From: Chloroflexota bacterium
GTDB lineage: Bacteria; Chloroflexota; UBA11872; VXOZ01
NCBI GenBank assembly: GCA_958295775.1
Contig: CATQHC010000002.1
Coordinates: forward strand, 1,015,830 to 1,079,829
Length of the DNA: 64,000 nucleotides
Direction of reading: 5' to 3'
Part shown: positions 27,443 through 55,112 of the stretch, one piece after another
How positions within the stretch are numbered: the first letter of the stretch is position 1
Layout of the letters: each line of letters starts with the position of its first letter
Position numbers and translations under genes: made by a program
The notes under the pieces: generated by a model
Told to the model about the DNA's origin: nothing
The model's database searches: none
The model's input: only the letters and a program-made list of their open reading frames with translations

Positions 27443-27465
27443 AGAATTTGCAAGGCCTAGCAGTG

Positions 27466-27563
27466 CATTCCCTCCGCAGGTATTAACCTGATCAGGTTCA
27501 AGGGTTTGGGGACGTAACCGTGTCCCTCGTCTCAGCCCGGACTCCCGAGCACCCCTACCACGC
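27466..27563 (-). promoter_or_regulatory. TPP riboswitch (THI element)
   Basis: Read on the minus strand the segment holds all the conserved THI blocks in order: GGGGTGC near 27549-27555, GGGCTGAGA, ACCCTTGAACCTGATCAGG, then TTAATACCTGCGGAGGGAAT. This pattern is unmistakable. It lies about 200 bp upstream of the permease start, with a terminator in between, so high TPP should stop transcription. No thi genes are in the window. Confidence 0.95.
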
Positions 27564-27635
27564 CACTCTTCACTTGTCCGACGCCGTTTACTCTAACACG
27601 ATCATGTCAACCGTGCAAGGCCCTGGCCAAACACC

Positions 27636-50771: not shown

Positions 50772-51401
50772 ATGGAACAAGAGCCATCTGACCAACCAAC
50801 ACTGGCAGCGGCAGCGAACGTCAATATCGTTGGCGAAAAAGTTGCCTTGGGCCCGCAGGGCAAAGATCTGAGCCCGCTCTTTGCGCGCTGGTTCAATGAC
50901 TTTCGCACCCTGAGCAGGCTGGGAGATTCGGTCCAACCGTGGACTACATTTCAAGAAGAGGAGCGAAACGCGAGCGTAGCCACGCGCAAAGAAACCGAGA
51001 TAGACTTTGCAATCTATGAGCGAGCCAGTGGACGTCCCATCGGTGTTACCGGTATTGGTGTTGACTATCGCAACCGCACTGCAGAGTTCGGCATCACAAT
51101 TGGCGAGCCGGACGCGCGCGGCAAGGGCTATGGCACTGAAACAACGCAACTGATGCTCGACTATGCGTTTGCGGCACTGGGCTTACACAACGTGAAACTG
51201 ACCGTACATGAATACAATTTGGCCGGTATCCGTGCCTACACGAAAGCCGGCTTCAAGCAATATGGGCGCCGCCGAGAGAAAATACTCATGGGCGGCAAGC
51301 GCTGGGACGAGATTTACATGCAGTGCCTGTCAACAGAGTGGGGGCCAAGCACCGTGCTGGCAAAGATCTTCCAGCCCGACGAACCGCACCCGAAACCCTA
51401 G
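50772..51401 (+). CDS. GNAT-family acetyltransferase 1 (RimJ/RimL-like)
   Basis: 209 residues. GNATs transfer acetyl from acetyl-CoA to an amine. The acetyl-CoA-binding loop is GEPDARGKGYGTE (motif A, R-x-x-G-x-G), preceded by YRNRTAEFGITI and followed by YNLAGIRAYTKAGFKQYGRRRE. It is the first of four tandem paralogues in 4.3 kb. The N-terminal part is the most different: VNIVGEKVALGPQGKDL and an altered segment around residue 50. Substrate unknown. No good ribosome binding site. Confidence 0.9.
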   Translation: MEQEPSDQPTLAAAANVNIVGEKVALGPQGKDLSPLFARWFNDFRTLSRLGDSVQPWTTFQEEERNASVATRKETEIDFAIYERASGRPIGVTGIGVDYRNRTAEFGITIGEPDARGKGYGTETTQLMLDYAFAALGLHNVKLTVHEYNLAGIRAYTKAGFKQYGRRREKILMGGKRWDEIYMQCLSTEWGPSTVLAKIFQPDEPHPKP

Positions 51402-51418
51402 CAATGGTTTTCGTTCGC

Positions 51419-51463
51419 CCCCGTATCGTGTCGATACGCTGTATTGAGTACGGGGTGGGCTCT
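51419..51463. repeat. Dispersed repeat, family A (copy 2)
   Basis: CCCCGTATCGTGTCGATACG then a GAGTACGGGGTGGGC tail, fused to a family R copy (51462-51502). The same A+R order follows the second GNAT gene. Confidence 0.65.
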
Positions 51464-51502
51464 GAGGCCGTCTGTCCTGAGCTTGCCGAAGGGTCGAAGT
51501 GC
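51462..51502. repeat. REP-like repeat, family R
   Basis: CTGAGGCCGTCTGTCCTGAGC then TTGCCGAAGGGTCGAAG; a copy in the array spacer. A shorter inverted piece (CGGCATGCTCAATACGAACGG) is at 51562-51582. Confidence 0.6.
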
Positions 51503-51643
51503 GATTCGCAAGAATGTTAAGCGCCCTGCGCACTCACAGCCGTTCACGCTTATGTACTTCGGCATGCTCAATACGAACGGGGTGGTCAGAGGAGCCTGAG
51601 GCGCGCATGATGCCGGACAGGAAAAGCAGCTACGTGGGGCTCA

Positions 51644-52279
51644 ATGAAAACGATGCCACAAGCAGAACCGCCGGAAGCAACGCCGGTCTTGAACCTGGTG
51701 GGTGAAAAGGTCGCGCTGGGGCCATTGCGCAAGGACCTGGTGCCAACCTACACCCGGTGGTACAACAAATTCTATACCCTGCGCACCCTTGGTGCGACGC
51801 CGCTGCCGCTAACCCTGGAGCAGGATGAACAGCAGCATGAACGCCTGATAGCGAACGCCAAGACCGATGTCTCATTCACAATTTACGAGCGATGCGGCTT
51901 CCGTCCCATCGGCAATACGGGTCTCCTTGATGTTGACTATCGCAACCGCACGGCCGAGCTGGGCCTGATAATTGCTGAACCGGACGCCCGCGGCAAGGGC
52001 CATGGTACGGAAACAACCAAACTTGTGCTCGACTATGCGTTTACGGCACTGGGCTTGCACAACGTGATGCTTACGGTCTTCGAGTACAATCTTGCCGGCA
52101 TCCGTGTCTACAATAAATCTGGCTTCAAGGAGTACGGCCGCCGACGCGAAAGCGTTTTCATGGGCGGCAAGCTCTGGGACATGATTCTCATGGACTGCTT
52201 GTCATCTGAGTGGGGACCGAGCCCCGCGCTGGCGCAGGTCTTCAAACCGGACAAGCCGCGACCGTCTCGCGAGAAATAG
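51644..52279 (+). CDS. GNAT-family acetyltransferase 2
   Basis: 211 residues, second tandem paralogue. LNLVGEKVALGPLRKDLVP at the start, VDYRNRTAELGLII, motif A AEPDARGKGHGTE (His for Tyr in the loop), then VFEYNLAGIRVYNKSGFKEYGRRRE and a C-terminal EWGPSPALAQVFKPD. ATG 51644 is used; ATG 51653 is an alternative with equal support. It lies 242 bp behind the first copy. Confidence 0.9.
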   Translation: MKTMPQAEPPEATPVLNLVGEKVALGPLRKDLVPTYTRWYNKFYTLRTLGATPLPLTLEQDEQQHERLIANAKTDVSFTIYERCGFRPIGNTGLLDVDYRNRTAELGLIIAEPDARGKGHGTETTKLVLDYAFTALGLHNVMLTVFEYNLAGIRVYNKSGFKEYGRRRESVFMGGKLWDMILMDCLSSEWGPSPALAQVFKPDKPRPSREK

Positions 52280-52287
52280 CCTCCGTT

Positions 52288-52384
52288 CGCCCCCGTTTCG
52301 TGTCGATACGCAGTTTCGAGTACGGGGCAGGCCCTGAGCGTGCCTGTCCTGAGGTCTTCGATGGTTCGAAGGACGAACCACGGC
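52288..52384. repeat. Family A + family R repeats
   Basis: CCCCGTTTCGTGTCGATACG...GAGTACGGGGCAGGC (A), then CCTGAGCGTGCCTGTCCTGAGG and GGTTCGAAGG (R). Same layout as after the first GNAT gene, so the unit gene-A-R was duplicated together. Confidence 0.65.
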
Positions 52385-52542
52385 AATGAAATATTCTCAG
52401 GGCGCTTCTGTCCGGTCATACTAAGGCGACTAAACTTACGCAAGACAAGCAGACTAAGTTCGAGCGGCATTGTCTGGCCTACATCAAGAAGACGGTGACG
52501 CTCAATGCGACCAGTCAGTTCAAGAACACAGGAAGATAAACA

Positions 52543-53166
52543 ATGAGTACAGAACCACAGAGTGAAACACCCGAAGCCGCCTCGCCGATCTTCAACATCG
52601 TTGGCGATAAGGTAGCGCTCGGCCCCCTGCGCAAGGACCTGGTCCCGCTGTACACGCGTTGGTTCAATGATTTTCGCATCCTGCGCACGCTGGGCGCGAT
52701 GCCGGTGCCACTGACATTGGAACAGGAAGAAAAGTGGTATGAGCGCGCGATCACGCGCGGCGATACTGACATAGCCTTTACAATCTACAAAAAGGCCACC
52801 GCACTCCCCATTGGCAACACCGACCTCCACGACATCGACCATCGCAATCGCACCGCCCTGTTTGGCATCACCATCGGCGAACCGGACGCCCGCGGCAAGG
52901 GCTACGGCACCGAAGCGACGCAACTCATGCTCGACTTCGCCTTCACCGTGCAGGGCCTGCATAACGTGATGCTCCATGTCCACGAATACAACCTCGCCGG
53001 CATCCGCGCGTACACAAAGGCCGGGTTCAAAGAGTTCGGCCGCCGCCGCGAAAGCCACTTCATGGGCGGCAAGTACTGGGACGTGATTCACATGGAGTGC
53101 CTAGCCACGGAGTGGGGCCCCAGCCCGGTGCTGGCGGAGATCTTCAAACCGGACGAGCCGCGGTAG
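52543..53166 (+). CDS. GNAT-family acetyltransferase 3
   Basis: 207 residues, third tandem paralogue. FNIVGDKVALGPLRKDLVP, IDHRNRTALFGITI, motif A GEPDARGKGYGTE, then HEYNLAGIRAYTKAGFKEFGRRRE. ATG 52543 has AGGAAG at 8 nt. The IS110 element is inserted 35 bp after its stop, in a family R repeat. It is more similar to copy 4 at the C-terminal end (WGPSPVLAEIFKP) than to copy 1. Confidence 0.9.
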   Translation: MSTEPQSETPEAASPIFNIVGDKVALGPLRKDLVPLYTRWFNDFRILRTLGAMPVPLTLEQEEKWYERAITRGDTDIAFTIYKKATALPIGNTDLHDIDHRNRTALFGITIGEPDARGKGYGTEATQLMLDFAFTVQGLHNVMLHVHEYNLAGIRAYTKAGFKEFGRRRESHFMGGKYWDVIHMECLATEWGPSPVLAEIFKPDEPR

Positions 53167-53228
53167 ATCTTGTTTGCTCTCGCGACGACTTCCGTTCGCC
53201 CTTATATCTTGGATAAGGGCGATAAAAT

Positions 53229-53380
53229 GGGAGCAGGCGTGGCAGACCGGTTCGCCCTAGGTCTGCAAGACCGTGGCTCAGAGTGGTCGTCACGCCTGCC
53301 GAACTCCCCCAGAGCCCGAACAGTTACCCGGACCATTAGTCCGCATATGTAAGGCAGGGACTGCAGGGGGCACCAAGAGT
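53229..53380 (+). ncRNA. Candidate bridge RNA of the IS110 element
   Basis: Two stem-internal-loop-hairpin units. Target loop: outer stem GCAGGCGTG/CACGCCTGC (53233-53241, 53291-53299), inner GACC/GGTC, cap hairpin GGTCT-GCA-AGACC (53260-53272). Its 5' strand GTTCGCCCT (53250-53258) equals the left target; its 3' strand GGCTCAG (53275-53281) is complementary to the right target CTGAGCC. Donor loop: CCCCC/GGGGG and CGGAC-CATTA-GTCCG (53329-53343); 5' strand ACAGTT (53320-53325) equals the element's right end, 3' strand TATGTAAG pairs with the left end CTTATAT using one G-T pair. Exact RNA ends are not known. Confidence 0.8.
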
Positions 53381-53382
53381 AG

Positions 53383-54342
<960 letters not shown>

Positions 54343-54359
54343 CTGCCAAGACAGTTTCT

Positions 54360-54420
54360 GAGCCTGTCGAAGGGTCTCCCTGAGCCTGCCTGTCCTGAGC
54401 TTGTCGAAGGGTCGAAGGGC
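54360..54420. repeat. REP-like repeat, family R, right half of the split target
   Basis: GAGCCTGTCGAAGGGTC, CTGAGCCTGCCTGTCCTGAGC and TTGTCGAAGGGTCGAAG. With TTCCGTTCGCCCT at 53190-53202 it makes the repeat the element entered. Confidence 0.7.
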
Positions 54421-54438
54421 TATCCGCATAGATCACAA

Positions 54439-55059
54439 ATGAATACTCAGTCAAAAGCAGAGCCACCAGCAGCACCGCCTCTCGTCAACATCGTGGGCGA
54501 GAAAATAGTGCTCGGTCCCATGCGCAAGGACCTGATTCCTGCCTACGCGCGTTGGTATAACGATCTGCATATGCTGCGCGCGCTTGGCGACATTCCTCGT
54601 CCGCAAACCCCGGCACAGAAAGCGCAGTGGTACGAAAACGCGAATACGGGTAGTGGCTCGAACATCACTTTCACGATATGCGAGCACGACTCCGCGCGCC
54701 CTGTTGGGATAGTCGGCCTCTACGGCGTCGACTTTCGCAACCGCACCGCCGAATTCGCTATCACGATTGCTGAACCGGACGCGCGCGGCAGGGGCTACGG
54801 CACGGAAGCGACGCGATTGATGCTCGACTACGCGTTCACCGCACTGGGCCTGCACAACGTGATGCTACGGGTCTTCGCTTTCAACGTCGCCGGCATTCGC
54901 ACCTATACGAAAGCCGGATTCAAGGAGTTTGGCCGACGGCGCGAGTGCTACTTGATGGGCGGCACGAATTGGGACGTGATCTACATGGAGTGTCTGGCGT
55001 CGGAATGGGGGCCAAGCCCGGTGCTCGCCGAGGTCTTCAAACCCGTCGAACCGCGGTAG
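54439..55059 (+). CDS. GNAT-family acetyltransferase 4
   Basis: 206 residues, fourth tandem paralogue. VNIVGEKIVLGPMRKDLIP, VDFRNRTAEFAITI, motif A AEPDARGRGYGTE (Arg-Gly-Arg for the Arg-Gly-Lys of the others), VFAFNVAGIRTYTKAGFKEFGRRRE and WGPSPVLAEVFKPVEP. It is cut off from copy 3 by the IS110 element. Ribosome binding site weak. The tail after the stop (CGGTAGATCTTG...CTTCCGTTCGCCCT) repeats that behind copy 3. Confidence 0.9.
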   Translation: MNTQSKAEPPAAPPLVNIVGEKIVLGPMRKDLIPAYARWYNDLHMLRALGDIPRPQTPAQKAQWYENANTGSGSNITFTICEHDSARPVGIVGLYGVDFRNRTAEFAITIAEPDARGRGYGTEATRLMLDYAFTALGLHNVMLRVFAFNVAGIRTYTKAGFKEFGRRRECYLMGGTNWDVIYMECLASEWGPSPVLAEVFKPVEPR

Positions 55060-55080: not shown

Positions 55081-55112
55081 CTTCCGTTCGCCCTGAGCCT
55101 GTCGCAGGGCGC
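55081..55112. repeat. REP-like repeat, family R, with an empty IS110 target
   Basis: CTTCCGTTCGCCCTGAGCCT matches the rebuilt empty site of the IS110 element; GTTCGCCCT at 55086-55094 and GAGCC at 55095-55099 match both guide strands of its bridge RNA. An inverted R copy follows at 55152-55200. Confidence 0.75.

What the first reader, a model, noticed from the sequence alone, without database searches (positions are those of the whole stretch)
53229..53380. Readable bridge RNA: guide strands match the element's own insertion site
The 5' non-coding end of the IS110 element folds into two internal loops. In the first, the 5' strand is GTTCGCCCT, identical to the left target 53194-53202 (9 of 9), and the 3' strand GGCTCAG is the reverse complement of CTGAGCC, the right target with core (7 of 7). 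This is the geometry known for the IS621 bridge RNA. A match of both strands in the right order by chance is very unlikely.
Basis: partly seen in the sequence, partly recalled or inferred. Interest (0 to 1): 0.9.

Follow-up and report, generated by a model that had tools for sequence, protein, structure and literature searches.

The report
IS110 element with readable bridge RNA
This is a mobile DNA element of the IS110 family whose own small guide RNA spells out the spot where it inserted; the reading is correct and well supported, but it is one more member of a mechanism published in 2024.

Summary
An intact IS110-group element (53203-54357, core CT on both sides) lies between two GNAT genes. 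Its recombinase is a sequence relative of IS621 and ISCro4 (E about 1e-44). LTG 53250-53258 equals left target 53194-53202 (9/9), and RTG 53275-53281 is the reverse complement of right target 54358-54364 (7/7). A covariance model built without this element or its same-genus siblings places the bridge RNA at 53226-53367 (96 bits, E 8e-21). An uninterrupted paralogous site (55086-55099) reads exactly as the guides predict. Across 24 distinct sibling elements, guides fit their own flanks (215 Watson-Crick matches) far better than swapped flanks (maximum 150 in 20,000 permutations). The 68%-identical sibling in the same genome carries different guides that fit its different site. Donor guides covary with the element's ends too. 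The target is a dispersed repeat (116 genome places within 2 mismatches, 8 exact). Function is inferred from IS621; nothing was tested at the bench. Verdict: new member of a known kind. By-catch: in two unrelated siblings the segment from left end to LTG core is tandemly duplicated, as if by self-targeting, or by slippage between LT and LTG.

The parts
53194..53202 (+). left target (LT) GTTCGCCCT, ending in core CT (53201-53202)
   Evidence: identical to LTG; identical to the empty paralogous site 55086-55094
53203..54357 (+). IS110-group element, left end to right end (core CT not counted)
   Evidence: flanks rejoin to GTTCGCCCTGAGCC, which exists uninterrupted at 55086-55099; end sequences conserved in siblings
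53203..53397 (+). long non-coding left end (LE)
53226..53367 (+). [quoted passage not shown]
   Evidence: covariance model R1 built from 23 elements outside the genus: 96 bits, E 7.7e-21
53250..53258 (+). left target guide (LTG) GTTCGCCCT
   Evidence: 9/9 with LT; sibling covariation
53275..53281 (+). right target guide (RTG) GGCTCAG
   Evidence: 7/7 reverse complement of RT; sibling covariation stops sharply after position 7
53320..53327 (+). left donor guide (LDG) ACAGTTAC
   Evidence: 7 of 8 with right end ACAGTTTC; in siblings with variant ends the guide changes alongside (ACAGGTGC, ACCGTTGC, ACGGTTGC, ACAATTGC)
53345..53353 (+). right donor guide (RDG) ATATGTAAG
   Evidence: TAAG pairs CTTA at the core/left end; siblings with CTTG have CAAG; siblings with CTTGTAC have GT...CAAG
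53398..54342 (+). IS110 recombinase, 314 aa from GTG 53398 (ATG at 53401 also possible)
   Evidence: Pfam DEDD_Tnp_IS110 and Transposase_20; IS621 8wt6 E 1.3e-43, ISCro4 9t56 E 1.1e-44; D12, E56, D98, D101, S236 kept
54339..54344 (+). -35-like TTGACT overlapping the stop codon; in the circle it would stand 17 bp from TATCTT at the left end
54343..54357 (+). short right end (RE), CTGCCAAGACAGTTT
   Evidence: conserved end motif in siblings
54358..54364 (+). right target (RT) CTGAGCC, starting with core CT
   Evidence: 7/7 with RTG
55086..55099 (+). empty (uninterrupted) paralogous target GTTCGCCCTGAGCC after the next GNAT gene

Best explanation
An IS110-group insertion sequence. Excision would form a circle joining right end, CT core and left end, which brings a -35-like TTGACT to 17 bp from a -10-like TATCTT and drives a bridge RNA of about 150-180 nt. 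The RNA is bound by the 314-aa recombinase. [quoted passage not shown] Its second loop reads the element's own joined ends. The enzyme then recombines at CT without target duplication. The element here sits in one copy of a dispersed repeat of its host. Shown by sequence: ends, guides, site, family, covariation. Inferred from IS621: RNA expression, binding, catalysis and the order of steps.
For: Exact LTG/LT and RTG/RT match. Empty paralogous site of exactly the predicted sequence. Independent covariance model hit; the same model finds only two such RNAs in the whole genome, each upstream of an intact recombinase. Sibling permutation test, 215 vs maximum 150 of 20,000. Guide limits by position. 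Same-genome sibling L002 with guides GCTGGCCCT/GGGAGAG at site CCTAGCCCT/CTCTCCC. Donor-guide covariation. Recombinase family and catalytic residues. TTGA with 17 bp spacing to a TATxTT-like box at the joined ends in 13 of 28 elements measured; several others have the same box one base off.
Against: LDG has one mismatch next to the core (A against T) in this element and in its sibling clade. No copy of this exact element at a second site in its genome, so recent mobility is not shown. No RNA or activity data. No Rfam family reached threshold at this place.
Confidence: 0.96

Rival explanations
1. The matches are chance or come from shared repeats: the host is full of this dispersed repeat, so a stray copy fell into the left end.
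For: The repeat is common: 116 places within 2 mismatches of GTTCGCCCTGAGCC (8 exact), against 31 in the reversed control.
Against: The two halves lie apart, on opposite strands, exactly in the two guide positions fixed by an independent model. Siblings with other targets carry other guides at the same two positions.
Confidence: 0.01
2. Inactive fossil: the element carries a true bridge RNA but no longer moves, because of the LDG/LD mismatch.
For: Single copy in the genome; A/T mismatch next to the core shared by the clade.
Against: Intact reading frame with DEDD and Ser residues. The sibling clade shares the mismatch and yet sits at different, guide-matched sites in two species of the genus (L002, L013).
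Confidence: 0.2
3. IS1111-type element (bridge RNA downstream, sub-terminal inverted repeats).
For: Same Pfam pair.
Against: Bridge RNA is upstream in the LE, the right end is 15 nt, and the guide order is that of the IS110 group (PMC11208160, PMC11187229).
Confidence: 0.01

Closest known systems
IS621 (E. coli; PMC11208160, PMC11208158; PDB 8wt6)
   Same: DEDD + Ser recombinase; bridge RNA in the LE; LTG/RTG and LDG/RDG order; CT core; promoter across the joined ends; insertion in dispersed repeats
   Different: Different target repeat and guides; RTG 7 nt rather than 4 (longer RTGs are already reported for other orthologues)
ISCro4 (PDB 9t56)
   Same: Highest-scoring relative of solved structure (E 1.1e-44)
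ISEc21 seekRNA and its retargeted relative ISMch6 (PMC11187229)
   Same: Upstream guide RNA, top-strand match 3' of bottom-strand match, natural retargeting between close relatives
   Different: Target lies in IS3-family transposase genes, not in dispersed repeats

Membership tests
IS110 group (IS110 family) | Recombinase with DEDD RuvC-like domain (PF01548) and Transposase_20 domain (PF02371) | tested here: met
   69.1 and 62.9 bits, above both curated cut-offs
IS110 group (IS110 family) | Catalytic D, E, D, D and Ser residues | tested here: met
   D12, E56, D98, D101, S236 in the corresponding motifs
IS110 group (IS110 family) | Long left non-coding end holding a two-loop RNA, short right end | tested here: met
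   195 nt LE with model hit, 15 nt RE
IS110 group (IS110 family) | Target guides match the element's own insertion site in the order LTG then RTG | tested here: met
   9/9 and 7/7; siblings covary
IS110 group (IS110 family) | Donor guides match the joined ends | tested here: met
   LDG 7/8, RDG TAAG/CTTA; covariation across siblings
IS110 group (IS110 family) | No terminal duplication beyond the core; clean empty site | tested here: met
   Paralogous site GTTCGCCCTGAGCC at 55086
IS110 group (IS110 family) | Circular intermediate expresses the RNA; RNA-dependent recombination | not testable with these tools
   Only promoter-like spacing at the junction seen
IS1111 group | Bridge RNA in a long right end | tested here: not met
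   Right end is 15 nt and the RNA is upstream
IS1111 group | Sub-terminal inverted repeats of 7-17 bp | not tested
   not searched for

The most novel reading that the evidence does not exclude
IS110 elements sometimes attack their own guide: the LTG-core DNA inside the bridge RNA gene acts as a left half-target, giving tandem duplications of the segment from left end to LTG. Two unrelated siblings carry such duplications with junctions exactly at the core (L007, unit 67 nt, two copies; L047, unit 53 nt, at least two copies). Replication slippage between the LT and LTG direct repeats, or an assembly fault, could give the same pattern.
Probability: 0.2. Interest if true: 0.5.

Novelty: new member of a known kind. 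Interest (0 to 1): 0.27.

Why it matters
It adds a fully readable natural bridge RNA system with empty site, guides, donor ends and a retargeted sibling in one genome. That makes it a clean comparative case for natural retargeting between dispersed repeats, and a possible further programmable recombinase. The per-position analysis suggests a 7-nt RTG and an effective 8-nt LTG in this clade. It does not change the known mechanism.

Tried and rejected
Rfam gathering search found only a TPP riboswitch, so a model was built from siblings instead. The search for related loci in viral contigs gave no relative. First attempts to extract guides by pattern failed through a wrong regular expression, and the pattern was then widened. 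A few siblings keep extraction errors (L030, L041, L042, L050). L030 and L042 stayed in the permutation test uncorrected; L041 had no left target and L050 repeats the guides of L046, so both dropped out of it. All four were left out of the per-position table. The hunt for more self-duplication junctions gave none in 400 genomes of the phylum and none convincing in viral contigs (53 stretches, L095 a chance repeat). That pattern covers only the TTGTAT form of the left end and would miss the TATATC form seen in L047.

Full report
WHAT IS THERE. The window holds an IS110-group element at 53203-54357 between two GNAT acetyltransferase genes of a tandem array. Its recombinase (53398-54342, 314 aa) has both Pfam domains of the family. 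It is a sequence relative of the two IS110 recombinases with solved structures that the search returned, ISCro4 and IS621 (E 1.1e-44 and 1.3e-43). The residues corresponding to D11, E60, D102, D105 and S241 of IS621 (numbers from PMC11208158) are kept as D12, E56, D98, D101 and S236. The left end is 195 nt and non-coding; the right end is 15 nt.

THE CLAIMED MATCH. LTG GTTCGCCCT (53250-53258) equals the left target 53194-53202. RTG GGCTCAG (53275-53281) is the reverse complement of CTGAGCC at 54358-54364, on the far side of the element. The RNA folds as a long stem with an internal loop whose two strands are these guides, around an inner hairpin. Among 5,000 random CT-centred sites of the window, placed anywhere in the left end, only the uninterrupted paralogue of the same target scores 16/16, and one site scores 15. 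The core is shared by both guides and near-constant in the family, so 12 positions are informative.

EMPTY SITE. The next GNAT gene of the array is followed at 55086-55099 by GTTCGCCCTGAGCC, uninterrupted. The last 30 bases up to the core are 83% identical to the left flank of the element, and the first 12 bases from the core (CTGAGCCTGTCG) are identical to the right flank. Joining the two flanks of the element across the CT core gives exactly this 14-mer.

INDEPENDENT PLACEMENT. 23 sibling left ends, none from the window's own genus clade, were aligned (19 predicted pairs, 8 with changes on both sides) and made into a covariance model. It hits the window at 53226-53367 with 96 bits, E 7.7e-21; the only other hit has E 0.12. 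In the whole genome it finds two RNAs, this one and one upstream of the 68%-identical sibling on contig C9.

SIBLING TEST. Recombinase searches gave siblings in the genus, class and phylum and a few elsewhere. Guides were cut out by fixed rules that do not look at the flanks. For 24 elements with distinct guides, Watson-Crick matches at the 12 non-core positions sum to 215 with their own flanks; the best of 20,000 permutations reaches 150. Per position (17 elements), own matches exceed swapped ones clearly for LTG positions 3-7, weakly for position 2 and not for position 1, and for RT positions 3-7; they fall to background from RT position 8-9 on. The same-genome sibling L002 has GCTGGCCCT/GGGAGAG and sits at CCTAGCCCT/CTCTCCC; a same-genus relative, L013, has the same guides at CCCGGCCCT/CTCTCCC. 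So two related elements in one genome read two different targets.

DONOR LOOP. In siblings the LDG copies the right end, including variants (ACAGGTGC, ACCGTTGC, ACGGTTGC, ACAATTGC), and the RDG follows the left end: CTTG with CAAG, CTTA with TAAG, CTTGTAC with GT...CAAG (the 'same' column printed there is off by one base, the sequences are to be read shifted). L033 (TAAG against CTTG, a wobble pair) and L041 (ACGG against ACAG) are exceptions. The discontinuous RDG pairing is the one described for IS621. This element has LDG ACAGTTAC against ACAGTTTC, one mismatch.

TARGET. GTTCGCCCTGAGCC is part of a dispersed repeat of the host: 116 places within 2 mismatches, 8 of them exact, against 31 in the reversed control; 41 copies of the overlapping motif CCTGAGCYTGTCGAAGG within 1 mismatch, none in the control. 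IS621 likewise inserts in repeats.

PROMOTER. Joining right end, core and left end puts TTGACT 17 bp from TATCTT; 13 of 28 elements measured have TTGA at that exact spacing, and several more have it one base off. This fits the junction promoter published for IS621 but was not tested.

MECHANISM AND STATUS. Shown by sequence: element ends, empty site, guides, donor guides, covariation. Inferred from IS621 and ISEc21: expression, binding, circle formation, catalysis. Natural retargeting is already reported, as is the whole mechanism. Hence a new member of a known kind.

BY-CATCH. L007 carries the segment from left end to LTG core twice (67 nt unit). L047 carries a 53 nt unit at least twice, its contig starting inside the repeat. 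In the L047 genome two other contigs end in left flanks that share TGTCATTCT, that element's LT = LTG, with different sequence before it. The junctions lie exactly at the core. Self-targeting, slippage between the LT and LTG repeats, or an assembly fault are all open; a wider search found no further case.

Noticed in passing
L007:1-510; L047 (minus strand, contig start): Tandem duplication of the segment from IS110 left end to LTG core, junction exactly at the core, in two unrelated siblings; looks like use of the element's own guide DNA as target, or slippage between LT and LTG.
   Followed up: partly
window 50772-55059: Tandem array of four GNAT acetyltransferase paralogues, the element sitting between the third and fourth.
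   Followed up: no
window 54358-54420, 55086-55110 and about 116 genome places: Dispersed repeat around GTTCGCCCTGAGCCTGTCGAAGGG in the host genome, here the IS target.
   Followed up: partly
L005:1470-1650: Truncated right end of a related IS110 (76% identical over its last 50 residues), also next to a CTCTCCC-type site.
   Followed up: no
window 27451-27566: TPP riboswitch on the minus strand (Rfam RF00059, 59.6 bits).
   Followed up: no
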